Source of the DNA: Rhodopseudomonas infernalis
GTDB lineage: Bacteria > Pseudomonadota > Alphaproteobacteria > Rhizobiales > Xanthobacteraceae
Direction of reading: 5' to 3'
NCBI RefSeq assembly: GCF_022271405.1
Contig: NZ_JAJNAL010000038.1
Location: 1 to 47,346, forward strand
Length of the DNA stretch: 47,346 nucleotides
The translations under genes were made by a program, and so were the position numbers. This document shows positions 8,083-22,294 of this stretch, in pieces. Position 1 is the stretch's first letter, and every line of letters begins with the position of its first letter. The notes under the pieces are model-generated. The model saw only the letters and a list, made by a program, of their open reading frames with translations, made no database searches and was not told where the DNA came from.

Positions 8083-9300
8083 ATGACGACGCTCACCCCT
8101 TCGGACTCGCTGCTGCGGCATCCTCCGTTGATGCTGTATCTCGGCGCGCGCACGTTCTCGCGCTTCGCCAGCCAGATCGCGGCGGTGGCGGTCGGCTGGC
8201 AGATCTACGACATGACCTCGAGCGCCTTCGCGCTCGGCATGATCGGGCTGGTGCAGTTCATCCCCACCGCGCTGCTGGTGTTTGTCGCCGGCCATGCGGT
8301 CGATCATTTCGACCGCAAGCGCGTGGTGCAGATCTGCCAGATCGTGCAGGGGCTGACGGCGCTGTTTCTCGCCGCCGGCACGTACGGCGACTGGCTGAGC
8401 GTAACGCAGATCTTCGTGGCGATGACGGTGGTCGGCATCGCCACCTCGTTCGAAAGCCCGGCAGTGGCGGCGATGCTGCCGTCGGTCGTGCCCGAGGGCA
8501 CGCTGCAGCGCGCGACCGCGACCTCCACCGGCGTCGCCCAACTGGCGATGATCACCGGCCCGGCGATCGGCGGCTTCGCCTATGCGGTGTCGCCGACGCT
8601 GCCTTACGCCATCATGGCGGCGTTCTGGATCGTCGGCAGCCTGCTGATTCCGCTGGTCGCCGTGACGCCTGCGCCGGCCAAACAGGCGACGGCGGACGTC
8701 GACGATCTCTATTCGGGCCTGCGCTTCGTCCGCTCCAATCCGGCGATCCTCGGCACCATCTCGCTCGATCTGTTCGCGGTGCTGCTCGGCGGCGCCACCG
8801 CGTTGCTGCCGATCTACGCGCGCGACATCCTGCACACCGGGCCGTGGGGGCTCGGCGTGCTGCGCGCCGCGCCGGCGATCGGCGCGCTGGCCATGACGAT
8901 CGTGCTGGCGCGCACGTCGATCACCAGCCGGGTCGGGCTGCGGATGTTCCAGGCCGTCATCGTGTTCGGCATAGCCACCATCGTGTTCGCGCTGTCCTGG
9001 TGGCTGTGGCTGTCGGTGGCGGCGCTGGTGGTGATGGGCGCAGCCGACACGGTCAGCGTCGTGATCCGGTTCTCGCTGGTGCAGCTCGCGACGCCGGACA
9101 ATATGCGCGGCCGGGTCGGCGCGGTGAACTTCCTGTTCATCAACGCCTCCAACCAGCTCGGCCAGTTCGAGAGCGGCGTCACCGCGGCGCTGTTCGGCGC
9201 GATGCCGGCGGCGGTGCTGGGCGGCGTCGGCACCGTGGCGGTGGCGCTGTTGTGGATGAAGCTGTTTCCGTCGCTGCGGCGGATCGAGCGGCTGGAATAG
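8083..9300 (+). CDS. MFS transporter (MFS_3/EntS-like exporter)
   Basis: A 405-aa membrane protein with about 12 hydrophobic segments. LGARTFSRFASQIAAVAVGWQIYDMT near the start and the loop GHAVDHFDRKRVV (motif A-like) fit the MFS_3 group that includes the enterobactin exporter EntS. ESPAVAAMLPSVVPEGTLQRA in the middle and NMRGRVGAVNFLFINASNQLGQFESG in the second half are also typical. The substrate is unknown. I chose the ATG at 8083, where homology starts; the frame is open far upstream but antisense to the nucleoside transporter gene. A family A repeat follows it. Confidence 0.92.
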   Translation: MTTLTPSDSLLRHPPLMLYLGARTFSRFASQIAAVAVGWQIYDMTSSAFALGMIGLVQFIPTALLVFVAGHAVDHFDRKRVVQICQIVQGLTALFLAAGTYGDWLSVTQIFVAMTVVGIATSFESPAVAAMLPSVVPEGTLQRATATSTGVAQLAMITGPAIGGFAYAVSPTLPYAIMAAFWIVGSLLIPLVAVTPAPAKQATADVDDLYSGLRFVRSNPAILGTISLDLFAVLLGGATALLPIYARDILHTGPWGLGVLRAAPAIGALAMTIVLARTSITSRVGLRMFQAVIVFGIATIVFALSWWLWLSVAALVVMGAADTVSVVIRFSLVQLATPDNMRGRVGAVNFLFINASNQLGQFESGVTAALFGAMPAAVLGGVGTVAVALLWMKLFPSLRRIERLE

Positions 9301-9315
9301 GTCTCGCAAAGAAGC

Positions 9316-9395
9316 GTCATTGCGAGGAGCGATGCGACGAAGCAATCCAGCGCCGAGCACTGGGCCCTGGATTGCTTCGCTTCGCTCGCAATGAC
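9316..9395. repeat. family A palindrome
   Basis: An 80-bp element with GTCATTGCGAG and CTCGCAATGAC outer arms and GAAGCAATCCAG / CTGGATTGCTTCG inner arms. It sits 15 bp after the MFS stop and 76 bp before the RuBisCO-like gene, where it may act as a terminator. Confidence 0.85.
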
Positions 9396-9470
9396 GGGGA
9401 AAGGCTGAAAGCTTGCTTGCAGTTCAAGACCCGCTTTAAGGTCGATCAGGCCGAAGCTGGAGTCAAGCCG

Positions 9471-10598
9471 GTGACCGGCAAGCACATCATCGCGACCTAC
9501 CATTTGAGCAGCGACGCGGCACGGATCGCCGACCGCGCGCAGTTTCTGGCGATCGAGCAGAGCGTCGAATGCCCGCTCGAGGCGATCGGCGATCCGTGGG
9601 TGCGCGACGCGATCCTGGGCCGGGTCACGCTGATCCAGGAGATTGCTGAGGGCCGCTATGCGGTGCGGATCGCGCTGGCCGCCGCGACCGCGCCGGCCGA
9701 GCCGGGCCAACTGCTCAACATGCTGTTCGGCAATGCCTCGATGCAGCCGGACGTCGAGCTGGTCGATGTCGAGCTGCCGCGATCCTACGCCGCGGCGTTC
9801 GGCGGACCGCGGCGCGGCATCGCCGGGATCCGCGAAGCGACCGGGACGCGGGGACGGGCCCTGACGGCCTCGGCGCTGAAACCGCAGGGTCTGTCGCCCG
9901 AGGCGCTCGCGGTGATCGCCGGCCGGTTGGCGCGGGGCGGCGTTGATCTGATCAAGGACGATCACGGCATCGCCGACCAGGCCTATAGCCCGTTCGCCGA
10001 ACGCATCCGCGCGGTCGGTCGCGCGGTGCGCGATGCCAATGCGGCGAGCGGAGGGCGAACGCTCTACGCGCCGCATGTCTCCGGCTCGCTCGATACGATG
10101 CGGCGGCAGCTCGATCTGATCCGCGCCGAGGGCATCGGGGCGCTAATGCTGATTCCGATGATCGTCGGGCTGTCGAACTTTCACGCGCTGGTGCGCGAGA
10201 CCGAGGGGCTGGCGGTGCTGGCGCATCCGGCGATGTCCGGTGGCGCACGGATCGCGCCGCCGCTGCTGCTCGGCAAGCTGTTCCGGCTGCTCGGCGCCGA
10301 CGCCACGGTGTTTCCGCATGCCGGTGGCCGCTTCGCCGCGACGGCCGAGAGCTGCTGGGCGTTGGCAGAGGCCGCGCGCGGCCAATGGGACGGGATGAAG
10401 CCGTGCCTGCCGGTGCCGGCCGGCGGCATCGCGATCGATCGCGTCGCAGAGCTGTTGTCGTTTTATGGTGAGGACGTGATGCTGCTGATCGGCGGCAGCC
10501 TGCTTGCGGCCGGCGAGCGGCTGACGGAGCAAGCGGTCTTGTTCACGGCGGAGGTTGCACGGCATGGCAAGTCACAGCACGACGTCGCATCCCGCTGA
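9471..10598 (+). CDS. RuBisCO-like protein (form IV, probably DeepYkr type; 5-methylthioribulose-1-phosphate isomerase candidate)
   Basis: A 375-aa member of the RuBisCO large-subunit superfamily that cannot be a carboxylase. KPQGLSP (137-143) is at the place of the first active-site lysine loop. IKDDHGIADQ (161-170) replaces the KDDE metal motif: Lys162, Asp163 and Asp164 remain, but the metal ligand Glu is His165. PAGG (316-319) and GGS (341-343) fit the phosphate-binding loops. In Rhodospirillum rubrum the DeepYkr-type protein isomerises 5-methylthioribulose-1-P to methylthioxylulose-5-P, and a cupin then forms methanethiol and deoxyxylulose-5-P. The overlapping cupin gene here supports the same shunt, which recovers MTA for isoprenoid synthesis. 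The start is GTG at 9471 with GGAG 9 bases upstream; a TTG at 9417 is a weaker alternative. Confidence 0.9.
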   Translation: MTGKHIIATYHLSSDAARIADRAQFLAIEQSVECPLEAIGDPWVRDAILGRVTLIQEIAEGRYAVRIALAAATAPAEPGQLLNMLFGNASMQPDVELVDVELPRSYAAAFGGPRRGIAGIREATGTRGRALTASALKPQGLSPEALAVIAGRLARGGVDLIKDDHGIADQAYSPFAERIRAVGRAVRDANAASGGRTLYAPHVSGSLDTMRRQLDLIRAEGIGALMLIPMIVGLSNFHALVRETEGLAVLAHPAMSGGARIAPPLLLGKLFRLLGADATVFPHAGGRFAATAESCWALAEAARGQWDGMKPCLPVPAGGIAIDRVAELLSFYGEDVMLLIGGSLLAAGERLTEQAVLFTAEVARHGKSQHDVASR

Positions 10599-12028: not shown

Positions 12029-12370
12029 TCAGGCGAGTTCGACCGGGCCGTGGTCGTCGCAATGGCCGGCGTGCGGATGGTGCAGGCGGCCGTCGACCAG
12101 ATAGTCGACATGATCGCCGTGCGGCACCGCTTCGTGGCCGCAGCCGGGGCCGTGGGTGTGGCCGGCGCAGGCGGTTTCCGGCGTGCATGTGACCGGGTTG
12201 GTGTCGTTCACCGCAATCACATGCTCATCGACATGGTCGCCGTGCATGTGGTGCAGATGGCCGTCGTGCAGATAGTCGACGTGGCCCTCGTGCTTGATCG
12301 CGGTGTGACCGCAACTCGGTCCGTGTTGGTGATCGTGATGCGTGTGGTGCGGTTCGTTGCAGGTGGTCAT
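12029..12370 (-). CDS. histidine-rich metal-binding protein with two tandem 29-residue repeats
   Basis: A 113-aa protein with 26 His and 6 Cys. Residues 15-43 and 72-100 are two copies of one unit with the shared pattern HGPxCGHxAxxHxxHVDYLxDGxLHHxH. A third HVDEH-like half lies between them. The metal-ligand density implies binding or buffering of Zn, Ni, Co or similar; short proteins with HVDYLxDGxLHH occur in other bacteria, sometimes labelled zinc transporter-like without proof. There is no membrane segment or signal peptide. Upstream a GATAAG/CTTATC palindrome overlaps the likely promoter. GGAGAGG lies 4 bases before the ATG. It converges with the gene at 11234 (21-bp gap). Confidence 0.85.
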   Translation of the reverse strand: MTTCNEPHHTHHDHQHGPSCGHTAIKHEGHVDYLHDGHLHHMHGDHVDEHVIAVNDTNPVTCTPETACAGHTHGPGCGHEAVPHGDHVDYLVDGRLHHPHAGHCDDHGPVELA

Positions 12371-12531: not shown

Positions 12532-13293
12532 TCACCCCCGCCCGACGAACGGCATCTTGGTGGCCATCACCGTCATGAACAGCACGTTGGCGTCGAGCGG
12601 CAGGCCGGCCATGTAGGCGACCGCGTCGCCGACGGCTTTGGCATCCATCCGCGGTTCGTGGCGGGTCGAGCCGTCAGGTTGCAGTACGCCGGGGCCGTCG
12701 ACCATGCGGTCGGTCATCGGCGTCGCGGCGTTGCCGATGTCGATCTGGCCGACTGCGATGTCATAGGCGCGGCCATCGAGATTGCTGGCCTTGGTCAGGC
12801 CGGTGATGGCGTGCTTGGTCGAGGTGTAGGCCGCGGAGAACGGCCGCGGCGCATGCGCCGAGATCGAACCGTTGTTGATGATGCGTCCGCCGCGCGGCGT
12901 CTGGTCCTTCATGATGCGGAAGGCGTGCTGCGTGCACAGGAACGGCGCGGTGAAGTTGGTGTCGACCACGGCCTGCCACTGCTGCAGCGACAGATCCTCG
13001 AACGGCACCGGCGGCGCGCCCATGCCGGCGTTGTTGAAGAGCAGATCGAGCCGGCCGTAGGTTGCGACGGTCTTGTCGAACAGCGCAGCGATCGAGGCAG
13101 GGTCTGCCATGTCGGCCTGCACCGGCAGGCTCTGGCCGATGCCTTCGCCGAGCTTCTGGGTTTCCTGCAATAGCGCGAGCCGGCGGCCGGCGAGCACCAC
13201 GGTGAAGCCGGCCTGCATCAGCGCCAGCGAGGCGGCGCGGCCGACCCCGGTGCCGGCACCGGTGACGAGTGCGATCTTGGTGGTTGCGGCCAT
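12532..13293 (-). CDS. SDR family oxidoreductase
   Basis: A 253-aa short-chain dehydrogenase. The cofactor motif TGAGTGVG is at 11-18, NNAG at 87-90, and Ser143, Tyr156 and Lys160 (YTSTK) form the catalytic set. [21 protein letters not shown] and [30 protein letters not shown] are typical of one proteobacterial subgroup whose substrate is unknown. The GNAT gene lies 26 bp upstream on the same strand, so the two may be co-transcribed. About 160 bp separate it from the His-rich gene. Confidence 0.93.
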
Positions 13294-13318
13294 GGTCAGT
13301 CCTCCCGATGTGGTGTTG

Positions 13319-13840
13319 TTATCGCGCGCCGAGGCTGCGCATCATGTAGCACGCTTCGGCGTCGTAGCTGCGCAGCTTGGCGTCCAGCGCCGGATCGGCG
13401 ATGCGCGCGAGACCTTGCTTGCTCCAGAACTGCACCGTTCCGCCGACTGCGACAAGCGAGATGTTGTCGGCGATCGTCGCTGCATGGCGCATCAGCGGCG
13501 CCAGAATGGCTGCGGCGGCGCCGCTGCCGCGGGCGACCGGCAGCAGCGCGATGTCGTGGATATAGTAGGTCGAGGCCGGCGAGGGCAGCGCACCGAGCAG
13601 CGCGTTCAGCGCGGGCGGCTGCCGCAAATTCCAGGGATGGCTGATCAGGTAGCCGGCGATCTCGGCGTCGCCGTCGGCGATGTCGCTCAGCACGTAGCAA
13701 CCTTGCGGATGCAGCGCGAGCCGCTCGGCGAACACCGCGGCGTCTTCCGGATAGTCGACGTGCACGGCTGCGGCAACGGCGTTGACCGCATCGAGGTCGG
13801 CGGCGGACATCGCCCGCCACTGGAGGGCGGTGGTGCTCAT
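13319..13840 (-). CDS. GNAT family N-acetyltransferase
   Basis: A 173-aa cytoplasmic acetyl-CoA-dependent transferase. [22 protein letters not shown] (about residues 91-112) is the beta4-alpha3 region with the CoA pyrophosphate loop in modified form (ARGSGAA for the usual R/QxxGxG/A). [16 protein letters not shown] is the usual beta6 region where substrate and product contact. The acceptor is unknown. It is the first gene of a likely two-gene unit with the SDR; upstream lies a family B palindrome and then the Anbu cluster. Confidence 0.85.
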
Positions 13841-13862
13841 GCGGAAGCAACGCTCCCAGCGC

Positions 13863-14010
13863 CGTCATTCCGGGATGCGCCCAAAGGGCGCAGGCCCGGA
13901 ATCCATATCCCCTGCCGGCTGTGGTTGAGGATTGCGGGTGAGGTGGTCGTCCTGTCGCGAGTCCAGGGGGTATGGATTCCGGGTTCGCGCTGCGCGCGCC
14001 CCGGAATGAC
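13863..14010. repeat. family B long palindrome
   Basis: A 148-bp element: GTCATTCCGGGATGCGCC with mirror GCGCGCCCCGGAATGAC, inner arms GCCCGGAATCCATA and TATGGATTCCGGG. It fills the gap between the Anbu stop and the GNAT start. Confidence 0.85.
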
Positions 14011-14053
14011 GGGGAGAGGGGAGTGCGGGATGACGTTGGTCATCGTGGTCGGG

Positions 14054-14800
14054 TTACTTCGCATCCTTGTAGGGCGGCCGTGGGATGTTCTTGTGGGCGG
14101 CGCGGAGGGCGGCGGACCAGCGTGAGCGGAGGTCGTGGAAGTACGGCTCCCCGGCTTCGATGCGGTGGTTGAGGTCGGCGTCGCAGACGTCGGTGCGGAC
14201 TACCAGCACGTCGATCGGCAGGCCGACGCCGAGATTGGAGCGCATCGTCGAATCCATCGAGATCAGGCTGGTTTTCAACGCCTCGTAGAGTTCGACGTCG
14301 AAAGTGATCGCGCGGTCGAGCACCGGCTTGCCGTATTTGTGCTCGCCGATCTGCAGATACGGCGTGTCGATGGTGCATTCGATGAAATTGCCGGCCGGGT
14401 AGATCATGAACAGGCGCATCCGCTCGCCCTTGATCTGGCCGCCGAACAGAAACGACACCTCGTAGTTGATGTCTTCGGCTTTCAGCGCCTGCGCCTCGGT
14501 GGCGTTGACGTGGCGGATCGCGCGGCCGATCAACTGCGCGGCCTGAAACATCGTCGGCGCGTCGAGCAGCTTTTCGCGCGCGCCGGTCTCGGGATCTTCG
14601 AGGCCCTCGTTGAGGGTCGACAGCACCGACTGGCTGATCGACAGATTGCCGGCACTGGCGATCGCCATGATGCGGTCGCCCGGCTTGTTGAAGACGTGCA
14701 GCTTGCGGAAGGTCGAGATGTTGTCGAGGCCGGCATTGGTCCGGGTGTCGGCGACCATCACGAGGCCGTCCTGGACCAGTACTCCACAGCAGTAAGTCAT
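14054..14800 (-). CDS. anbu: Anbu proteasome-like peptidase (ancestral beta subunit, COG3484)
   Basis: A 248-aa Ntn-hydrolase related to HslV and proteasome beta subunits. After Met removal the N-terminus is Thr1 (TYCCG), the expected nucleophile. Asp17 in MVADTRTNAG and Lys32 in STFRKLH fit the conserved catalytic Asp and Lys. FGGQIKGERMRLFMIYPAGNFIE and GKPVLDR are Anbu-specific. Anbu proteins from other bacteria assemble into open rings or spirals; their substrate and partner ATPase are unclear. It is the last gene of a four-gene minus-strand cluster after ATP-grasp, alpha-E and transglutaminase-like genes, an association seen in many proteobacteria that suggests peptide making or tagging plus cleavage. 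Confidence 0.95.
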   Translation of the reverse strand: MTYCCGVLVQDGLVMVADTRTNAGLDNISTFRKLHVFNKPGDRIMAIASAGNLSISQSVLSTLNEGLEDPETGAREKLLDAPTMFQAAQLIGRAIRHVNATEAQALKAEDINYEVSFLFGGQIKGERMRLFMIYPAGNFIECTIDTPYLQIGEHKYGKPVLDRAITFDVELYEALKTSLISMDSTMRSNLGVGLPIDVLVVRTDVCDADLNHRIEAGEPYFHDLRSRWSAALRAAHKNIPRPPYKDAK

Positions 14801-14960
14801 CTCGTCCTCGGCGGCTCTGTCGATCAGGGGAAACCGGCGCGGCTGCGCATTCGGCGGCTGGAGACTAGAGCATTTCGCCCTTCAGGGGAAACCGCCTGTA
14901 CTCCGCAATTGTGCGCAGCCGCCCGGCGCCGGACCGGTCGCAGTTGCCGATTTGATGACG

Positions 14961-15800
14961 CTACTGCGATTGCGATTGCGATTGTGACTGGCGGCCGCCG
15001 GCCTGATCGACCTTGACGGCGACGGTCAGGGTTTCGAGGCCGCCGCCATAGCGCGTGCCGCGCACCGGCGCGGCGCCGAGATAGTCGAGCCCGATGGCGA
15101 CGCGGGCGTGAGCGTCGGTCGAGCAGATGGCGTTAGCCGGATCGAACCCGACCCAGCCGAGCGTCGGCACATAGGCTTCTGCCCAGGCGTGGCCGGCCTG
15201 TTGATTGATCTGGCCATCGGCGCGCAGGAAGTGGCCGGCGACGAAGCGGGCAGGCACGCCGCCGGCGCGCGCGCAAGCAATGAAGATATGCGCATAGTCC
15301 TGGCACACGCCACGGCGCAGCGTGAAGGCTTCGGCTGCGGTGGTGCCCGAATGAGTCGGATCGTCGTCGAACGTCATGTGATCGTTGAGCCGCATCATCA
15401 GCGCGTGCAGGAAGCTGATGGCGTCGCCCTCGGCGCCGCCGATCTCGCGAGTGAAGGCGGCGATCGACGGACTCGGCGCGGTGAGATCCGTCGTGCGCAG
15501 GAACAGCTGCGGCGGAAAGCGCTCGTCGGTGCCGCGCATCACGCCGCCGGTGTCGTTGGTCTCGACCAACCCTTCGGCCGTGATGGTGAGATCCTCGGTG
15601 GTGCCGAGCGTGAGCACATGGGTGATGTTGCCGAACGCGTCCTCGTGCATGTCGAGCTTGGCGTCGGATGAAATGTCGATCTGCCAGTCGGCGACGTATT
15701 GGCCGTCATGGCTGCCGGGCGTCATCCGCAGCACCTGGATCAGTCCGGTGGCGGCAGGCTCATAGCGATAGGTGGTGGTGTGGGAAATTCGCAGGCGCAT
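14961..15800 (-). CDS. transglutaminase-like cysteine protease of the Anbu cluster
   Basis: A 279-aa protein with an N-terminal Transglut_N beta domain (MRLRISHTTTYRYEPAATG, to about 110) and a transglutaminase core. The triad is Cys166 (RRGVCQDYAH), His204 (GHAWAEAY) and Asp220 (GFDPAN). Bacterial members act as peptidases or amide-forming enzymes. No signal peptide is seen, so it is cytoplasmic. It lies 160 bp before the Anbu start in transcription order and 142 bp after alpha-E. The C-terminus ends in SQSQSQSQ, encoded by a short tandem repeat (14964-14990), a region likely to vary between strains. Confidence 0.93.
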   Translation of the reverse strand: MRLRISHTTTYRYEPAATGLIQVLRMTPGSHDGQYVADWQIDISSDAKLDMHEDAFGNITHVLTLGTTEDLTITAEGLVETNDTGGVMRGTDERFPPQLFLRTTDLTAPSPSIAAFTREIGGAEGDAISFLHALMMRLNDHMTFDDDPTHSGTTAAEAFTLRRGVCQDYAHIFIACARAGGVPARFVAGHFLRADGQINQQAGHAWAEAYVPTLGWVGFDPANAICSTDAHARVAIGLDYLGAAPVRGTRYGGGLETLTVAVKVDQAGGRQSQSQSQSQ

Positions 15801-15942
15801 GGGTCGGCATTCCGGGTCGTCGCGGCGCAGAGCGCGCGGACTATATCAGCTATGGCGGCGAGACTTGCGAGAAATGCCGATGTGCCCGCATTTTTCAATG
15901 GCGGATGGGCCGGCGCGCGGCAAACCGCGCCGGAATCAGGCG

Positions 15943-16887
15943 TCAGATTAGATATTGCTTGGCGATGATCTCGCCGAGGCGGCTGTTGTCGGCCAGGAAT
16001 TCCTGGATAAATTCGTGCAAGCCCCGCTGGAAGATGTCTTCCATGTCGGAATGCTCGAGCCGGTTACGAATGCCGCGGGCGTGGCGCTGCGCCGGCCCCT
16101 GACGGCCATAGGCGACGCCGATCTGGTCGAGGTTGCGGAGCAGATCGCCGTAGCAGGACGCGAGTGAGCGCGGCAGGCTGTCGTTGAGGATCAACAGGTC
16201 GGCGATCAGCCACGGCTTCAGCGTCTGCCGATACACCCAGTGATAGGCGGTCTGCGCCGACACCGAGCGCAGGATCGACGACCACTGATAGTAATCGAGC
16301 GGGCCGCCGACGTGCTCCTCCTCGGGCAACAGCAGATGATATTTGACGTCGAGAATCCGCGCGGTGTTATCGGCCCGCTCCAGATGGACGCCGAGCCGCG
16401 AGAACCAATAGGCGTCGTTGCGCAGCATGGTGCGATAGGCCGAGCCGTCGAACCGCAGTGAGGCCTCCTGCACGAAGCGGAGGAAGCCATCGAGCTGCTC
16501 GCGAGTCTTGGCACCCTTGCTCCAGGTCTCCTGCAGTTCGATCCAGGCGCTGTTGATGGTTGCCCACATCTCGCCGGTGAGCGCCGTGCGCACCGACCGC
16601 GCGTTCAGCCGTGCTGCCTCGATGCAGTTGCGGATCGAGGACGAGTTGGTCGAGGCGAATGCGAGATATTCGACGACGTTGGCCTCGTTCGCCTCGTCGT
16701 AGTGCGTGTAGAAGCTGGCGGCGACGCCGGCCGTCAGCAGCGCCGAATCCCACTCGTTACCCTGACCCGAATAGGTGTTGGGCAGGGCGGTGACACGCAG
16801 CGTCGCCTCGATCGTCCGCGCCAGATACTCCGCGCGTTCGACATAGCGGGCGAGCCAGAACAGGTTTTCAGCGGTGCGGGAGAGCAT
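15943..16887 (-). CDS. alpha-E domain protein (DUF403, COG2307)
   Basis: A 314-aa all-helical protein, the normal family length. It starts MLSRTAENLFWLARYVERAEYLARTIEA and has WxxLxRNDAYWFSRLGxHLERADNTARILDVKYH in the middle, family landmarks. The family is almost always beside circularly permuted ATP-grasp genes and has no known activity; it may bind the ATP-grasp product or act as its partner. I chose the ATG at 16887 because homology starts there; the frame is open further upstream into a family E repeat. It ends 142 bp before the transglutaminase start in transcription order. Confidence 0.93.
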   Translation of the reverse strand: MLSRTAENLFWLARYVERAEYLARTIEATLRVTALPNTYSGQGNEWDSALLTAGVAASFYTHYDEANEANVVEYLAFASTNSSSIRNCIEAARLNARSVRTALTGEMWATINSAWIELQETWSKGAKTREQLDGFLRFVQEASLRFDGSAYRTMLRNDAYWFSRLGVHLERADNTARILDVKYHLLLPEEEHVGGPLDYYQWSSILRSVSAQTAYHWVYRQTLKPWLIADLLILNDSLPRSLASCYGDLLRNLDQIGVAYGRQGPAQRHARGIRNRLEHSDMEDIFQRGLHEFIQEFLADNSRLGEIIAKQYLI

Positions 16888-16910
16888 GGCGCGAACTCGG
16901 GGACGGCGTT

Positions 16911-17013
16911 CTCCCTCGCCCCTTGCGGGGGAGAGGCGGGGTGGGGGGTGACACGAGGTGAGGATCCCGTTGTGGAACCCCACCCCCGAAACCTCCCCGC
17001 AAGGGGGAGGGGA
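16911..17013. repeat. family E palindrome inside the Anbu cluster
   Basis: CTCCCTCGCCCCTTGCGGGGGAG and CCTCCCCGCAAGGGGGAGG hairpins flank GGGGTGGGGGGTG and its mirror CCCCACCCCC. It lies in the 167-bp gap between the ATP-grasp stop and the alpha-E start and could lower expression of the downstream genes. Confidence 0.8.
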
Positions 17014-17054
17014 GCGGGCAGCGGTCGTGGCGGCGCTCGACGTGTGCGGCGGAG

Positions 17055-18473
17055 CTACTCATCCAGAATCCACGTGTCCTTGGTGCCGCCGCCCTGGCTG
17101 GAGTTCACCACCAGGGAGCCTTCCTTCAGCGCCACACGGGTCAGGCCGCCGGGGACGATGGTGACGCGGTCGCAGCCGGTGAGCACGAACGGGCGCAGGT
17201 CGACATGGCGCGGCGCCAATCCGGCTTCGGTGCATGTCGGGCAGGTGGAGAGCGCCAGCGTCGGCTGGGCGATGAAGCCCTCCGGCTCGCGCTTCAGCTT
17301 GTCGCGGAACGCCTCGATGGTCGCCTTGGTGGCGGCGGGGCCGATCAGCATGCCGTAGCCGCCGGAGCCGTGCACTTCCTTGACGACCAGTTCGCCGAGG
17401 TGATCGAGCACATAAGCGAGGTCTGCCGGCTCGCGGCAGCGCCAGGTCGGGACGTTCTTCAGGATCGGCTCCTCGCCGAGATAGAATTTCACGATCTCCG
17501 GCATGTAGCTGTACACCGCCTTGTCGTCGGCGATGCCGGTGCCGACCGCATTCGCGAGCGTGACGTTGCCGGCGCGATAGGCCGACATCAGCCCGGGCAC
17601 GCCGAGCGCGGAGTCCGGACGGAAGGTCAGAGGATCGAGGAAGTCGTCGTCGACGCGGCGATAGATCACGTCGACGCGTTTCAGCCCCTCGGTTGTGCGC
17701 ATGAACACTTCGTCGTTCTTGACGATGAGGTCGCGGCCCTCGACCAGCTCGATGCCGAGCTTGTCGGCCAGGAACGAGTGCTCGTAATAGGCGGAGTTGT
17801 AGATGCCGGGCGTCATCAGCGCGACGGTCGGCTCCGACGAGGAATGCGCCGGCGCCACCGAGCGCAGCGCGGTCAGCAGTTCGTCCGGATAGCGCTCGAC
17901 CGGCGCGATGCGGTGGCGGGCGAACAGATCCGGGAACAGCCGCATCATCACTTCGCGGTTTTCCAGCATGTAGGACACGCCGGACGGCGTCCGGGCGTTG
18001 TCCTCCAGCACGTAAAAGTCCTCGTCGTCGACCCGGACGAGATCGATGCCGGCGATGTGGACGTAGACGTCGTGCGGCACGGCCTGACCGTTCATCTCCG
18101 GGCGGAACACCGGGTTCTGAAAGATCAGATCGTGCGGGATGATGTCGGCGCGCAGGATGTCGCGGCCGTGATAGATGTCGCGCAGGAACATGTTGATCGC
18201 GCGCACCCGCTGCTTCAGCCCGAGTTCCATCCGGGCCCATTCGGTGCCGGACAGGATCCGCGGGATCACGTCGAACGGGATCAGCCGCTCCTGGGCCTCG
18301 GCGTCGCCATAGACCGCGAAGGTGATGCCGATCCGCCGGAACAGCATCTCGGCTTCCTCGCGCCGGTGGGCGAGCGCCTCGGGCGGCGTGTCTGCAAGCC
18401 AGCGGGACAATTCTTCATAGGCCGGGCGGGGCTCGCCGCCGGGACCTTTCATCTCATCGAACGCAACTGCCAT
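17055..18473 (-). CDS. circularly permuted ATP-grasp protein (DUF404/DUF407, COG2308)
   Basis: A 472-aa protein, the usual length. Landmarks are YEELSRWL near the start, IPFDVIPRILSGTEWARMELGLKQRVRAINMFLRDIY, DLVRVDDEDFYVLEDNARTPSGVSYMLENREVM and the C-terminal GYGMLIGP and LRPFVLTG. ATP-grasp enzymes activate a carboxylate as acyl-phosphate and join it to an amine or thiol, so a peptide or peptide-like product is expected. I chose the ATG at 18473 (MAVAFDEMKG), in line with family N-termini. It is the first gene of the cluster and divergent from the CinA/MoaB-like gene (211-bp gap), so the cluster promoter lies there. Confidence 0.95.
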   Translation of the reverse strand: MAVAFDEMKGPGGEPRPAYEELSRWLADTPPEALAHRREEAEMLFRRIGITFAVYGDAEAQERLIPFDVIPRILSGTEWARMELGLKQRVRAINMFLRDIYHGRDILRADIIPHDLIFQNPVFRPEMNGQAVPHDVYVHIAGIDLVRVDDEDFYVLEDNARTPSGVSYMLENREVMMRLFPDLFARHRIAPVERYPDELLTALRSVAPAHSSSEPTVALMTPGIYNSAYYEHSFLADKLGIELVEGRDLIVKNDEVFMRTTEGLKRVDVIYRRVDDDFLDPLTFRPDSALGVPGLMSAYRAGNVTLANAVGTGIADDKAVYSYMPEIVKFYLGEEPILKNVPTWRCREPADLAYVLDHLGELVVKEVHGSGGYGMLIGPAATKATIEAFRDKLKREPEGFIAQPTLALSTCPTCTEAGLAPRHVDLRPFVLTGCDRVTIVPGGLTRVALKEGSLVVNSSQGGGTKDTWILDE

Positions 18474-18684
18474 GTCGCCAATTTGATTCCAAAGCTGTTT
18501 GCACGAGAGTGCAGCACGGAACACGATGGTAGCAAGCGTCGGGCCAGCAAGATATGGATGGAGTGGACCGATTTATGCGAGCAGGCAGGGATGTTGCTCG
18601 AAAAACGGGCGGCAGGACGCCTAATTAAGTGCCAATGTGCAAGTTGAGACGGCCGAGCCACGGCCGGGAGGGACAAGGGACGTC

Positions 18685-19428
18685 ATGAGCGACATCGTCA
18701 CGGCGGGTATTCTGGTGATCGGCGACGAGATCCTGTCCGGCCGCACCAAGGACAAGAACATCGGCTTCATCGCCGAATACCTCACAAACATCGCTATCGA
18801 CCTGCGCGAGGTCCGTGTCGTCGCGGACGACGAGGACGCGATCATCGAGGCGCTCGACGCGCTGCGCAACCGCTACACCTATGTCTTCACCACCGGCGGG
18901 ATCGGCCCGACCCACGACGACATCACCGCAGACTGCGTCGCAAAGGCGTTCGGTGTGTCGATCGGCTATCATCCGGAGGTGGTGGCGCGGTTCCGCGAGC
19001 GCTTCTCGGAAGCGGAACTCAACGAGGCGCGGCTGCGGATGACGCGGATCCCGGAGGGGGCAGAGCTGATCCAGAGCGCGACGATCATCGCGCCGGGGTT
19101 CAAGATCGGCAATGTCATCGTCATGGCCGGTGTGCCGTCGATCATGCAGGCGATGATGGATATCGTCGCGCCGAAGCTGAAGTCCGGCGTGAAGATGCTG
19201 TCGGACACCGTCAAGGCCGACGCCCGTGAGGGCGATATCGGCGGGCCGCTGCGGGCGATCGCCGCGGCGCATCCGGACACGATGATCGGCAGCTATCCGT
19301 TCCTCGACGAGGAGCGCAAACCGAACACCAATCTGGTGGTCCGCTCGCGCGATCCGGAGAAGCTGCAGGCCGCCATGACGGCGGTGAAGCAGATGCTGGC
19401 CGAGTTGCAGGCAGGGCGGACTGGTTGA
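18685..19428 (+). CDS. CinA N-terminal/MoaB-Mog-like molybdopterin-binding domain protein
   Basis: A 247-aa protein. VTAGILVIGDEILSGRTKDKN (residues 5-25) and VFTTGGIGPTHDDIT (67-81) are the MoaB/Mog/CinA fold motifs. It lacks the C-terminal deamidase domain of full CinA (about 410 aa), so it is a stand-alone family member. Related enzymes act on molybdopterin or hydrolyse pyrophosphates such as ADP-ribose; the substrate here is not known. GGGAGGGA lies upstream of the ATG at 18685, where homology begins. A family A repeat and gpt follow. Confidence 0.88.
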   Translation: MSDIVTAGILVIGDEILSGRTKDKNIGFIAEYLTNIAIDLREVRVVADDEDAIIEALDALRNRYTYVFTTGGIGPTHDDITADCVAKAFGVSIGYHPEVVARFRERFSEAELNEARLRMTRIPEGAELIQSATIIAPGFKIGNVIVMAGVPSIMQAMMDIVAPKLKSGVKMLSDTVKADAREGDIGGPLRAIAAAHPDTMIGSYPFLDEERKPNTNLVVRSRDPEKLQAAMTAVKQMLAELQAGRTG

Positions 19429-19446
19429 GCACAGAGGTTGTTCGAC

Positions 19447-19557
19447 GTCATTGCGAGCACCCGGATCGGCGCTCTGCGCCGTCCGGGCACAGGCTCCGCG
19501 AAGCAATTCAGCGCCACGCGCGCGGCGTGGATTGCTTCGCCTTCGGCTCGCAATGAC
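19447..19557. repeat. family A palindrome with enlarged left arm
   Basis: A 111-bp copy with GTCATTGCGAGCACCCGGAT at the start and GGCTCGCAATGAC at the end. It is longer than other copies because of an inserted GC-rich stretch (GCGCTCTGCGCCGTCCGGGC). Confidence 0.8.
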
Positions 19558-19577
19558 GGAGAGATTGGAGTGAGTGA

Positions 19578-20084
19578 ATGGAGAACGAGCAGCGGGCGGG
19601 CCGGCCGTTTCCGGTGTCGTGGGATCAATTCCACCGCGACTGCCGGGCACTGACCTGGCGGCTCAACGAAGTCGGGCCGTTTCACGCGGTGATCGCCATC
19701 ACCCGCGGCGGCCTGGTGCCGGCGGCGATCGTGGCGCGCGAACTCGGTCTGCGGGTGATCGACACCATCTGCATCGCCAGCTACGAGCACGACAAGCAGG
19801 GCGAGCTGCAGGTGCTGAAAGGCGTCTCCGAGCAGACCGCCGCGCTCGGCGGCGGCACCGGCAAGGGTCTGCTGATCGTCGACGACCTGGTCGACACCGG
19901 CAAGACCGGCCGCATGGTGCGCGACCTGCTGCCCGACGCCCATTTCGCCACCGTCTACGCCAAGCCCAAGGGCAAGCCGCTGGTGGACACCTTCATCACC
20001 GAAGTCTCGCAGGACACCTGGATCTTCTTCCCCTGGGACACCGGCCTCAGCTTCCAGCCGCCGCTGAAGGACGGCGCGGCGTAG
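19578..20084 (+). CDS. gpt: xanthine-guanine phosphoribosyltransferase
   Basis: A 168-aa type I phosphoribosyltransferase that converts xanthine or guanine plus PRPP to XMP or GMP (purine salvage). [18 protein letters not shown] (40-57) and the PRPP-binding [10 protein letters not shown] (101-110) are diagnostic, as are [28 protein letters not shown] and the C-terminal end. It is slightly longer than E. coli Gpt (152 aa). It stands alone between family A and family E repeats; guaB, another GMP-pathway gene, is about 22 kb away. Confidence 0.95.
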
Positions 20085-20117
20085 CGGGGCAATGACGGAG
20101 AGGGAGCAGCAGCCTAA

Positions 20118-20292
20118 CCTCTCCCCGCGCGCGGGGAGAGGTCGGATTGCGTAGCAATCCGGGTGAGGGGGCGTTTCCGCGAGTCTGAGCATTTCGGGTG
20201 GCTCCCCTGACCGCCGATCAGTACATCGCAGGCGCTCGGCCACGCGGAGGCGCCCCCTCATCCCAGCCTTCTCCCCGCAGGCGGGGAGAAGG
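20118..20292. repeat. family E palindrome
   Basis: CCTCTCCCCGCGCGCGGGG with TTCTCCCCGCAGGCGGGGAG at the other end, and GGTGAGGGGGCG mirrored by CGCCCCCTCATCC. It occupies most of the 255-bp gap between gpt and the next gene. Confidence 0.8.
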
Positions 20293-20339
20293 AGCGCGCC
20301 GTGTGCGTGAAGCAGTCGTGCTCGACATCCGGAGCTCCC

Positions 20340-21026
20340 ATGCCGCTGCAAAACCGCGTCACGCCGTTCGGTGACATCGTCGCAGTCGCCGCGCGCGGGA
20401 TGTTCACCGGCAATCGCGGCATCATCCATGATCCGGCGACGCGGACGCTGCTGAACCGGCGCTGGTCGAATCCGGCGTGGATCACTTGCGTCTGCGACTT
20501 CCGCGGCCGCCGCCGCGCCGTGATGGCGACGCGGAGCTGGACCGAGCTGTTCTTTCTCGATGAAGCGACCGCGCTCGCGGCCGGGCACCGGCCGTGTTAT
20601 TACTGCCGCCGCGAAGACGCCAAGCGCTTCGCCGCCGCATGGGTGCGGGGCAACGCCTTGTCCCGCATCACCGCCAAGGAGATCGACGGGGTGCTGCATC
20701 GCGAACGCCTCGACGGGCGGGACAAGCGGTTGCATCCGCTGCCGTGCGCGGTGAGCGAGTTGCCGGATGGCGCGATGGTGGCTGAACGGAGTGACCCAGC
20801 TTCACCGGTTGCCGCCGACGAGGCTATGCCGCAGCGGAGTCCCGCATGCTACCTGATCATGCGCGGCCGCCCGCTGCGGTGGTCGTTCGACGGCTATCGG
20901 CCGGCTGATGCCGAGGCGCTGGATCTCCAACCGATGCGCTGTGTCCTGCTCACACCGCCCTCGACGCTGCGCGCCCTCATCGCAGGCTATACGCCCGCAC
21001 TGCATCCAACCACAGGCACCACCTAA
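20340..21026 (+). CDS. conserved protein of unknown function with CYYC motif
   Basis: A 228-aa protein of a family I cannot name. Residues 7-30 (VTPFGDIVAVAARGMFTGNRGIIH), WSNPAWITCVCDFRGRRR (42-59), WTELFFLDEATALAAGHRPCYYCRREDA (67-94) and the later RPLRWSFDGY look conserved rather than random. Cys86 and Cys89 (CYYC), with Cys50 and Cys52 nearby, could form a zinc site, in a way that recalls the Ada N-terminal domain, but that link is only a guess. I chose the ATG at 20340, with GGAG upstream. Confidence 0.75.
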   Translation: MPLQNRVTPFGDIVAVAARGMFTGNRGIIHDPATRTLLNRRWSNPAWITCVCDFRGRRRAVMATRSWTELFFLDEATALAAGHRPCYYCRREDAKRFAAAWVRGNALSRITAKEIDGVLHRERLDGRDKRLHPLPCAVSELPDGAMVAERSDPASPVAADEAMPQRSPACYLIMRGRPLRWSFDGYRPADAEALDLQPMRCVLLTPPSTLRALIAGYTPALHPTTGTT

Positions 21027-21030
21027 CCCC

Positions 21031-21176
21031 GTCATTCCGGGGCGCGCGCAGCGCGAACCCGGAATCCATAACCCCTGTGGACGAGATCAAGCACAGCGGC
21101 GCGACGTCACGCACTAACAACATGGTCCAGGGAGTATGGATTCCGGGTTCGCCGCTGCGCGGCGCCCCGGAATGAC
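21031..21176. repeat. family B long palindrome
   Basis: A 146-bp element: GTCATTCCGGGGCGCGCGC, GCGAACCCGGAATCCATA, mirrored by TATGGATTCCGGGTTCGC and GCGCCCCGGAATGAC. It lies between two convergent genes. Confidence 0.88.
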
Positions 21177-21235
21177 GGGGAGAGGTTGGTGACGAAAGAG
21201 AGGCCGGCGACCGAGGGATGCCGGCCTGTTGACTT

Positions 21236-21262
21236 GTTACTTAAACCGTCTCCTCGCCAGCA
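21236..21262 (-). pseudogene. decayed copy of the 3' end of the MetE-like gene
   Basis: Just beyond the stop of the MetE-like gene (35 bp along), the minus strand again encodes LARRRFK and a stop, against LARERFK and stop in the gene itself. About 21 of 26 bases agree. It is best explained as the remnant of a tandem duplicate gene. Confidence 0.6.
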
Positions 21263-21271
21263 CCGCCCCGG

Positions 21272-22294
21272 TTACTTGAACCGCTCCCGCGCCAGCTCAG
21301 CGCCTGCACCCAGCGCCGCCAGCTTGGCTTCCGCGATCTCCCGCCGCATCGGGGCCATGCCGCAATTCGTCGTCGCCACGATGTTGCTTTTCGGCACGTG
21401 CTTCATCACTGCCTCGATGGTGGCGCAGACGTCCTCGGCGGATTCGACCTCGTCGCTGGCGACGTCGATGACGCCGGCCTGCACGATCTTGCCCTTCAGC
21501 AGCGACAGCAGCTCCAGCGGCACCTTGGAGTTGCGGCATTCGACCGCGACCTGCTGGATCGAGCTCCGATCGATCGCCGGGAAGATGTCCTCGTATTGCC
21601 GCCACTGATCGCCGAGCGTTTCCTTCCAGTCGGTGTTGGCCTTGATGCCGTAGCCGTAGCAGATGTGCACGGCGGTGGCGCAGGTGAGGCCCTGCGCGGC
21701 GCGCTCCAGCGCCTTGACGCCCCAGTCGGCGGCCTCGCTCATGTAGACGTTGAACGCCGGCTCGTCGAACTGGATCATGTCGATGCCGTCGGCGGCGAGC
21801 GCCTTGGCTTCCTCGTTCAAAAGCTCGGCGAAGGCGAACGCCATCTTGACGCGGTCGCCGTAGTGATTGTCGGCGATGGTGTCGATGATGGTCATCGGGC
21901 CGGGCAGGGTGAACTTGATCTTGTGCGTGGTATGCGCCCGCGCGATCTGCCCTTCGAAGCCGTGGACGCGGCCCTTCAGCCGCAGCGGCGCGACGACCTG
22001 CGGCACCATCGCTTTGTAGCGATCGTTGCGGATACCCATCTCGACCTTGTGGGCGAAGTCGATGCCTTCCACCGCTTCGAGGAAGCCGTGGACGAAATGC
22101 TGCCGCGCCTGTTCGCCGTCGGTGACGATGTCGACGCCGGAATCTTCCTGCAGCTTCAGCGCGAGAATCGTGGCGTCGCGCTTGGCACGGGCGAGTTCCT
22201 CGCCGCTCGATTTCCACGGCGCCCACAGCTTGTTGGGCTCGGCGAGCCATTCGGGCTTCGGCAACGAACCGGCGATCGTGGTCGGAAACAGCAT
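21272..22294 (-). CDS. core-MetE type cobalamin-independent methionine synthase-like enzyme
   Basis: A 340-aa protein equal to the catalytic C-terminal half of MetE, without the N-terminal half. The zinc ligands are all present: His210 and Cys212 (VHICYGYG), Glu252 (VECRNSK) and Cys311 (TTNCGMAP). FDEPAF (176-181) carries the homocysteine-binding Asp. Such short enzymes transfer a methyl group to homocysteine or another thiol; the methyl donor may differ from polyglutamyl-methyltetrahydrofolate. No MesX (DUF1852) partner is visible nearby. It is divergent from a GST gene, and its leader holds two hairpins. A decayed second copy of its 3' end follows. Confidence 0.9.
   Translation of the reverse strand: MLFPTTIAGSLPKPEWLAEPNKLWAPWKSSGEELARAKRDATILALKLQEDSGVDIVTDGEQARQHFVHGFLEAVEGIDFAHKVEMGIRNDRYKAMVPQVVAPLRLKGRVHGFEGQIARAHTTHKIKFTLPGPMTIIDTIADNHYGDRVKMAFAFAELLNEEAKALAADGIDMIQFDEPAFNVYMSEAADWGVKALERAAQGLTCATAVHICYGYGIKANTDWKETLGDQWRQYEDIFPAIDRSSIQQVAVECRNSKVPLELLSLLKGKIVQAGVIDVASDEVESAEDVCATIEAVMKHVPKSNIVATTNCGMAPMRREIAEAKLAALGAGAELARERFK

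What the first reader, a model, noticed from the sequence alone, without database searches (positions are those of the whole stretch)
14054..18473. Complete Anbu gene cluster: ATP-grasp, alpha-E, transglutaminase-like protease, Anbu
Seen: four adjacent minus-strand genes with intact catalytic residues (Thr1/Asp17/Lys32 in Anbu; Cys166/His204/Asp220 in the transglutaminase-like protein; a full-length circularly permuted ATP-grasp). Known: these families co-occur in many proteobacteria, and the cluster's substrate is unresolved as far as I know. Inference: the ATP-grasp makes an amide- or peptide-linked product or tag, alpha-E helps, and the two hydrolases process it. It is the best candidate in the window for a poorly described system.
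Basis: partly seen in the sequence, partly recalled or inferred. Interest (0 to 1): 0.75.

Follow-up and report, generated by a model that had tools for sequence, protein, structure and literature searches.

The report
Nitrogen-controlled Anbu amide ligase operon
This is an ordinary, intact copy of a bacterial gene cluster known since about 2008 whose product is still unknown; the useful addition is a conserved nitrogen-starvation type switch in front of it, which suggests where to look for its job.

Summary
Four intact minus-strand genes lie at 14054-18473: circularly permuted ATP-grasp, alpha-E, transglutaminase-like and Anbu, with the stated residues.

I add: (1) a -24/-12 (sigma54) promoter-like site at 18546-18531, 73 nt before the ATP-grasp ATG. 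It is conserved in the family; 27 of 67 ATP-grasp upstream regions over Pseudomonadota reach 12 bits, against 9 of 358 control regions, and only the correct spacer gives the signal. This agrees with most published nitrogen-limitation data. (2) Anbu is the loosest member: often unlinked, rarely with a sigma54 site of its own. (3) The genome holds a second locus (DUF2126 amidoligase, fused degenerate ATP-grasp/alpha-E, transglutaminase-like), adjacent to the first in other lineages. (4) Alpha-E is a tandem duplication with conserved Arg/Glu residues.

Best reading: a nitrogen-limitation-induced module that makes and breaks an amide-linked conjugate. The substrate is unknown. A published rpoN-mutant result conflicts with strict sigma54 dependence.

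The parts
17055..18473 (-). Circularly permuted type 2 ATP-grasp amide ligase (type I, intact active-site motifs)
   Evidence: Pfam PF14403 E 8.8e-169; PDB 3n6x E 1.8e-207; among 43 aligned type I proteins the E-x-N before PSG is in 43, GGYG in 42, KDxW in 41, DLRP in 41
15943..16887 (-). Alpha-E protein, tandem duplication of a unit with an ER motif (E17 R18; E170 R171)
   Evidence: Pfam PF04168 E 5.1e-90; N-half against C-half hhalign E 5e-19 to 6e-18 for three cut points, reversed control 0.1; conserved R/E residues
14961..15800 (-). Transglutaminase-like cysteine hydrolase, C166/H204/D220
   Evidence: Pfam PF01841 and PF08379; residues
14054..14800 (-). Anbu, proteasome-like Ntn hydrolase, T1/D17/K32
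   Evidence: PDB Anbu chains E 7.3e-86 to 6e-64; alignment; residues
18531..18546 (-). Sigma54 (-24/-12) promoter-like site TGGCCCGACGCTTGCT, 73 nt upstream of the ATP-grasp ATG
   Evidence: 15.8 bits; TGGCCCG-N4-TTGCTA occurs once in each of 14 of 16 genus genomes, the pattern read backwards 3 times in the 16
16911..17014 (.). G+C-rich inverted repeat (37-nt arms, 73% complementary) in the gap between ATP-grasp and alpha-E; possible mobile palindrome or attenuator

Best explanation
The cluster is a member of the known Anbu / alpha-E / ATP-grasp system and works as a nitrogen-limitation-induced make-and-break module for an amide-linked conjugate. Step 1 (inferred from promoter conservation and published regulation in other genera): at low nitrogen, NtrC or another enhancer-binding protein with sigma54 RNA polymerase switches on the operon from 18546-18531. 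Step 2 (inferred from the family): the ATP-grasp activates a carboxylate as an acyl phosphate and joins it to an amine. Step 3 (inferred from gene fusion in the paralogous locus): alpha-E, a duplicated protein with a conserved Arg/Glu-rich residue set, binds the ATP-grasp and holds or positions the substrate. Step 4 (inferred): the transglutaminase-like cysteine enzyme and, more loosely, Anbu hydrolyse the amide bond and release amino acid or amine nitrogen, in the manner of known ligate-then-hydrolyse routes (glutathionylspermidine, gamma-glutamylated polyamines; recalled). Shown here: anatomy, residues, promoter conservation, looser linkage of Anbu, the second locus. Not shown: transcription in this genus, substrate, product, order of steps.
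For: Promoter: 35 of 67 type I ATP-grasp upstream regions score >=10 bits and 27 of 67 >=12. At >=12 bits: 9 of 358 control upstreams (2.5%) and 1.4% of mononucleotide shuffles; other spacers (1-3, 5-7) give 0-2 of 67 and the opposite strand 1 of 67. Taking one locus per family, about 13 of 40 families against 1 expected. In the window's family 20 of 23 upstream regions hold TGGCCCG-N4-TTGCT, and a TGC-N11-GCA dyad starts 88-89 nt before it in 15 of 23 (that place was read from the result, not set beforehand). Exact GCAC-N7-GTGC dyads in 7 of 67 regions, 1.0% in shuffles, 8 of 358 controls; five start 67-76 nt before a >=13.7-bit site. Further exact dyads in Burkholderia stagnalis (two) and in two more genomes of unnamed family f51. 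Own genome encodes one RpoN and nine strong sigma54-activator domains. Published: the B. cenocepacia cluster is listed among common NtrC and sigma54 targets (PMC5491218 passages); P. putida PP_2686-2688 up 11-15 fold in nitrogen limitation (PMC7801951 passages); DNA upstream of PP_2688 drives a nitrogen-starvation reporter (PMC8050072 passages). Ligase: intact motifs; orthophosphate release by the Yersinia ATP-grasp (PMC6376114 passages). Partnership of ATP-grasp and alpha-E: fused in the own second locus and in the 80 loci kept from a search that used the fused protein as query.
Against: In P. putida the triad was still induced 14-20 fold (and urtABCD 7-17 fold) in a strain called an rpoN mutant (PMC7801951 passages), so sigma54 may not be strictly needed there or that strain is not a clean null. 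40 of 67 upstream regions lack a >=12-bit site; the best site stays under 9 bits in, for example, unnamed families f20, f24, f25, f45, f47 and f53. Of 8 named plasmid-collection records, 2 reach 12 bits (B. stagnalis, Caballeronia); Klebsiella has 11.5, Sinorhizobium meliloti 9.6, and Limimaricola, Enterobacter, Deinococcus and Tsukamurella 5.2 or less. The window's own clade lacks a clear TGC-N11-GCA dyad at the upstream place, and the range that I had set beforehand (-75 to -48) held none in 23. Fuchs et al. (PMC5666114, section 14) argue for protein degradation rather than peptide synthesis, since proteasome inhibitors bind Anbu. No activity on AMC substrates and no interaction of operon proteins were found (PMC6376114 passages). 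No neighbouring nitrogen-salvage gene stands out: the commonest non-core family is in 14 of 91 loci, and it is the large short-chain dehydrogenase superfamily. GspS does not align significantly with either ATP-grasp profile (a single GspS sequence).
Confidence: 0.42

Rival explanations
1. Protein tagging: the ATP-grasp (with the DUF2126 amidoligase) attaches an amino acid or peptide tag to proteins, and the transglutaminase-like enzyme and Anbu remove the tag or degrade tagged proteins (the Iyer 2009 / Valas and Bourne 2008 ideas, as cited in PMC6376114).
For: Ligase plus two hydrolases in one cluster; Anbu is proteasome-like; nitrogen starvation would suit protein turnover.
Against: No recurrent tag or carrier gene was seen among the neighbour families printed; only ORFs of at least 80 aa were used, so a short tag peptide would be missed. 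No Anbu match in 70 of 212 alpha-E genomes. No peptidase activity seen (PMC6376114).
Confidence: 0.2
2. Biosynthesis of a small peptide-like or amine-containing metabolite made under nitrogen limitation (signal, storage or protective compound); the hydrolases trim it.
For: Two different amide-ligase families in the paralogous locus (PF14403 and PF09899 'putative amidoligase'); all 120 of 398 genomes with DUF2126 also have alpha-E.
Against: No transporter or tailoring gene specific to the loci was seen among the neighbour families printed (an ABC-transporter ATPase-like family, named from its sequence, is in 13 of 91 loci); making a nitrogen-rich product when nitrogen is short is costly.
Confidence: 0.2
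3. Anbu is an independent processive protease for bulk protein turnover in nitrogen shortage, and the ATP-grasp triad is a separate neighbour.
For: Anbu stands apart in unnamed family f50 (no triad gene beside it in 10 of 11 loci read, mutS in 7 of the 11), is present without alpha-E in 3 of 398 genomes, and rarely has a sigma54 site (1 of 66 >=12 bits); the argument of Fuchs et al. 2017 (PMC5666114).
Against: 142 of 145 Anbu genomes also have alpha-E; 97 of the 121 Anbu places with a listed alpha-E row are within 6 kb on the same strand; Anbu and ATP-grasp mRNAs rise together on nitrate in P. putida (PMC8050072 passages).
Confidence: 0.13

Closest known systems
Anbu operon of Pseudomonas / Yersinia / Hyphomicrobium (Valas and Bourne 2008; Iyer 2009; PMC5666114; PMC6376114)
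   Same: Same four families, same order, same catalytic residues; Anbu chains 5loy, 5nyj, 5nyf, 5nyw, 5lox match by sequence
   Different: Wide intergenic gaps and a G+C-rich palindrome between ATP-grasp and alpha-E here; the second ATP-grasp/alpha-E locus lies on another contig
Alpha-E/ATP-grasp 'type II' locus with TG-DUF2126 (own genome L005; 80 loci, nearly all titled Alphaproteobacteria; PF09899)
   Same: Also alpha-E, circularly permuted ATP-grasp and transglutaminase-like proteins; alpha-E of both types keeps the same residues (159 rows)
   Different: ATP-grasp fused to alpha-E and degenerate: E-x-N before PSG in 0 of 52 and 0 of 9 aligned rows, GGYG in 0 and 0, DLRP in 1 and 0, KDxW in 0 of 52 but 6 of 9; adds a DUF2126 amidoligase; no Anbu in the held flanks of 80 loci; few sigma54 sites (8 of 79 >=12 bits)
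Glutathionylspermidine synthetase/amidase (E. coli GspS, PDB 2io7)
   Same: Circularly permuted ATP-grasp ligase paired with a cysteine amidase (recalled); D-x(11 or 12)-E-x-N motif in both by eye
   Different: No significant sequence alignment; the amidase domain is fused in GspS (annotation)
NtrC/sigma54 nitrogen regulon (PMC5491218, PMC7801951, PMC8050072, PMC12316311)
   Same: -24/-12 element with strict spacing and upstream NtrC dyads in several lineages
   Different: Not tested experimentally in the window's genus; many lineages lack a recognisable site; one rpoN-mutant result conflicts
RimK/RimB and Rlo systems (PMC12239564 passages)
   Same: ATP-grasp paired with a peptidase; Rlo also has a transglutaminase-fold protein
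   Different: Aspartic peptidases instead of Anbu; Rlo's transglutaminase domain is inactive and its peptidases secreted; no homology test was run here

Membership tests
Anbu operon | Anbu protein with T1/D17/K32 | tested here: met
Anbu operon | Circularly permuted type 2 ATP-grasp with intact motifs | tested here: met
Anbu operon | Alpha-E protein | tested here: met
Anbu operon | Transglutaminase-like protein with Cys/His/Asp | tested here: met
Anbu operon | Order ATP-grasp, alpha-E, transglutaminase-like, Anbu on one strand | tested here: met
   this order in 32 of 91 loci read (chosen partly for oddities; in L006 and L030 other DNA lies before Anbu)
Anbu operon | Open-ring oligomer and enzymatic activity | not testable with these tools
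   structure prediction switched off; activity needs a bench
Sigma54/NtrC-controlled operon | -24/-12 site with GG-N10-GC spacing, conserved | tested here: met
Sigma54/NtrC-controlled operon | NtrC dyad upstream of the promoter in this genome | tested here: inconclusive
   clear in 15 of 23 family members, not in the window
Sigma54/NtrC-controlled operon | Nitrogen-, NtrC- and RpoN-dependent transcription | not testable with these tools
   published for B. cenocepacia (PMC5491218); for P. putida nitrogen induction is published but an rpoN-mutant result conflicts (PMC7801951)
Glutathionylspermidine synthetase | Sequence homology to GspS / fused amidase | tested here: not met
   no significant alignment to one GspS sequence; no amidase domain in the ATP-grasp protein
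20S proteasome / HslV | AAA+ unfoldase gene beside the protease gene | tested here: not met
   no AAA+ family among the 10 ORFs scanned at 12532-22294; the rest of the genome was not searched for a partner

The most novel reading that the evidence does not exclude
The alpha-E/ATP-grasp/transglutaminase system is a widespread, previously unrecognised nitrogen-salvage cycle: under NtrC/sigma54 control it ligates a carrier acid to amine or peptide nitrogen and then releases usable nitrogen by the two hydrolases. Alpha-E would be the substrate-holding or even catalytic partner of both an active (type I) and a degenerate (type II) ATP-grasp, and Anbu a late, optional amidase rather than a proteasome.
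Probability: 0.22. Interest if true: 0.75.

Novelty: already known. Interest (0 to 1): 0.42.

Why it matters
The cluster's families occur in a large share of Pseudomonadota (alpha-E in 212 of 398 sampled genomes), and in the papers seen here the substrate is still unknown. A conserved nitrogen switch in front of the ligase gene names the condition under which to look for the product, and points to the core (ATP-grasp, alpha-E, transglutaminase-like) beside Anbu, which the published activity assays that I saw tested with proteasome substrates.

Tried and rejected
Considered and dropped: chance ORFs (strong family matches); a 'complete' single-unit system (second locus; unlinked Anbu); gene context as a clue to the substrate (no informative neighbour among the 45 largest neighbour families printed; a Peptidase_Mx metallopeptidase recurs in 6 loci); sigma54 control of Anbu itself (4 of 66 >=10 and 1 of 66 >=12 bits) and of the own type II locus (best site 7.95 bits); mapping residues on GspS by hhalign (no alignment); RNA elements (no Rfam match at gathering score); sigma70-type sites (none found in 13800-18800). 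That the type II ATP-grasp is degenerate is not claimed as new: from memory, the Pfam text of PF04168 already speaks of active and inactive ATP-grasps (recalled, not from a call).

Slips of mine: the Anbu table pasted into searches left out genome G169, which is in both lists, so overlaps are given as 142 of 145 and not the 141 of 144 printed. One search used a mistyped pattern (no match) and was repeated correctly. The start-codon choice was automatic, so some positions are approximate. The Anbu search used a profile of six related Anbu proteins (A1), so divergent Anbu could be missed.
Full report
OBSERVATION. PDB relatives exist for ATP-grasp (3n6x), Anbu (five distinct sequences) and the transglutaminase-like protein (3isr), none by sequence at E 0.001 for alpha-E. 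The window is contig C32 of a 5.5-Mb genome. The best named matches to its second locus are mostly Rhodopseudomonas and Bradyrhizobium records, a Rhodopseudomonas first. The ATP-grasp upstream region was read in 11 further genomes of the window's genus (L006, L008, L013, L175-L182).

PRIOR WORK. PMC5666114 and PMC6376114 (passages; section 14 of the first) describe this operon, its order, the peptide-synthesis and tagging ideas of Iyer 2009 and Valas and Bourne 2008 (neither is held; seen only as cited), crystal structures, lack of activity on proteasome substrates, no interaction among the four proteins, and phosphate release by the ATP-grasp.

DISTRIBUTION. In one sample of 398 genomes of the phylum, alpha-E is in 212, Anbu in 145 and DUF2126 in 120. 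Of the 145 Anbu genomes 142 have alpha-E (corrected for one genome left out of my list); 70 alpha-E genomes have no Anbu match; all 120 DUF2126 genomes have alpha-E. I pasted 145 Anbu places into. For 121 of them one search listed an alpha-E row: 97 lie within 6 kb on the same strand, 3 within 6 kb on the other strand, 12 further away and 9 on another contig. For 24 no row was listed (the table was cut), of which 3 have no alpha-E. In unnamed family f50 Anbu stands apart: in 10 of 11 loci read no triad gene lies beside it, and mutS is near it in 7 of 11. In a genome of the window's own genus (L006) a chemoreceptor-like gene on the other strand separates Anbu from the rest (named from its sequence, not by a family search).

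SECOND LOCUS. The genome holds a TG-DUF2126 protein (ORF 1184 aa), a fused ATP-grasp/alpha-E and another transglutaminase-like protein on contig C21. In 12 of 91 loci read, parts of both systems lie in one stretch (a thirteenth hit of the script, L014, is a split type II gene), and an Enterobacter roggenkampii plasmid carries both in a row. In type II ATP-grasps the E-x-N before PSG is in 0 of 52 and 0 of 9 aligned rows against 43 of 43 type I rows; GGYG 0 and 0 against 42; DLRP 1 and 0 against 41; KDxW 0 of 52 but 6 of 9, against 41. So they look degenerate, most clearly in the 52-row set. Alpha-E is kept in both types: in 159 rows S3 R4 W11 R14 E17 R18 E20 R24 R100 G148 G166 E170 R171 P239 R240 and others stay at 85% or more. 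Alpha-E is thus under constraint even where its ligase partner looks dead. Its two halves align with each other (hhalign E 5e-19 to 6e-18; reversed control 0.1). In the 80 best loci kept (query: the fused protein) a transglutaminase-like ORF was found in 79 and Anbu in none within the held flanks.

PROMOTER. The best sigma54-type site upstream of the ATP-grasp gene is TGGCCCGACGCTTGCT at 18546-18531, 15.8 bits. Weights were set by me from the recalled consensus, not trained on these loci. Over 67 upstream regions (of 78 ATP-grasp hits; type II and weak ones left out) in 40 families, 35 score >=10 bits and 27 >=12, against 7.3% and 2.5% of 358 upstream regions of other genes in the same loci and 4.6% and 1.4% of mononucleotide shuffles. 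Spacers of 1-3 and 5-7 give 2-8 (>=10) and 0-2 (>=12) of 67; the opposite strand gives 2 and 1. With one locus per family, about 13 of 40 families reach 12 bits against 1 expected. In the window's family 20 of 23 regions hold TGGCCCG-N4-TTGCT inside mostly variable DNA. The pattern TGGCCCG-N4-TTGCTA occurs once per genome in 14 of 16 genus genomes (backward control 3 in 16); 10 of those 14 places lie within loci that I read and fall upstream of this gene, the other 4 were not checked. Exact NtrC dyads are in 7 of 67 regions (0.7 expected from shuffles; 8 of 358 controls), five of them 67-76 nt before a strong site. In the window's family a TGC-N11-GCA dyad lies 88-89 nt before the site in 15 of 23, a place found after the fact (none in the range set beforehand); the window has no clear copy there. 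Upstream of Anbu 1 of 66 and upstream of the large type II gene 8 of 79 reach 12 bits. Of 8 named plasmid-collection records, two reach 12 bits, Klebsiella 11.5, Sinorhizobium meliloti 9.6, four 5.2 or less, two of these outside Pseudomonadota. One RpoN and nine strong activator domains are encoded in the genome.

PUBLISHED REGULATION. In B. cenocepacia the DUF404/407, DUF403, transglutaminase-like and large transglutaminase-like genes (I35_5080-83) are among common sigma54 and NtrC targets, changed -6.0 to -9.4 in the ntrC mutant (PMC5491218 passages). In P. putida PP_2686-2688 rise 11-15 fold in nitrogen limitation, but Anbu (PP_2685) 1.12 fold in that wild type (PMC7801951 passages), against 11.1 fold in another study (PMC3325844 passages) and about 22 fold on nitrate, alongside about 16 fold for PP_2688, in a third (PMC8050072 passages). 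In that third study DNA upstream of PP_2688 was nitrogen-induced and that upstream of PP_2685 constitutive, but so was that of glnK, so the reporter result for Anbu is weak. A 2025 survey lists COG3484 in sigma54 regulons with enrichment in alpha-, beta- and gammaproteobacteria and reads it as protein quality control (PMC12316311 passages). Marine metagenomes link these domains with urea domains (PMC3597751 passages). Against: induction persists in a P. putida rpoN mutant (triad 14-20 fold), as does that of the urea transporter genes (PMC7801951). So nitrogen control is partly in print; I found no paper that shows the promoter conserved across families for the whole operon (searches, open-licence papers only).

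MECHANISM. From the families: ATP-grasp makes an acyl phosphate and an amide; two hydrolases of unrelated folds can cut amides. From regulation: the cell wants this when nitrogen is short. The economical reading is a ligate-and-release route that mobilises nitrogen, with glutathionylspermidine and gamma-glutamylated polyamine routes as functional analogues (recalled). It remains an inference; no neighbour gene names the substrate. Tagging, metabolite synthesis and independent proteolysis stay open as rivals.

VERDICT. The promoter result makes the open question of substrate more testable, hence 0.42.

Noticed in passing
window 8844-10598 (+): ORF with a RuBisCO large-chain catalytic domain (PF00016 E 1.1e-20), probably a RuBisCO-like protein; start not refined.
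   Followed up: no
window 12029-12370 (-): 113-aa His-rich protein with many HxH-like stretches and no Pfam match at E 0.001; looks metal-binding.
   Followed up: no
L014 8586-11035 (-): Type II fused ATP-grasp/alpha-E gene split into two overlapping ORFs in one genus member; natural break or sequence error.
   Followed up: no
L033, L034 (G114, G322) and G412: One genus (g136) has Anbu without any alpha-E match (3 of 398 genomes); its Anbu may do without the ligase triad.
   Followed up: partly
L084 6077-7237 (+) and L011, L060, L061, L062, L089: Zinc-ribbon plus Peptidase_Mx metallopeptidase family in six ATP-grasp/alpha-E loci, three of them without Anbu in the stretch read (Pfam on the L084 member only); a possible stand-in hydrolase.
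   Followed up: partly
L200 (Enterobacter roggenkampii plasmid p1_120063): Both alpha-E systems in one row on a 90.7-kb plasmid, with arsC and transposase genes listed upstream.
   Followed up: no
window 13862-14012 and 16911-17014: Palindromic repeats after Anbu and between ATP-grasp and alpha-E; the first resembles a dispersed palindromic element by its sequence (my guess, not searched).
   Followed up: no
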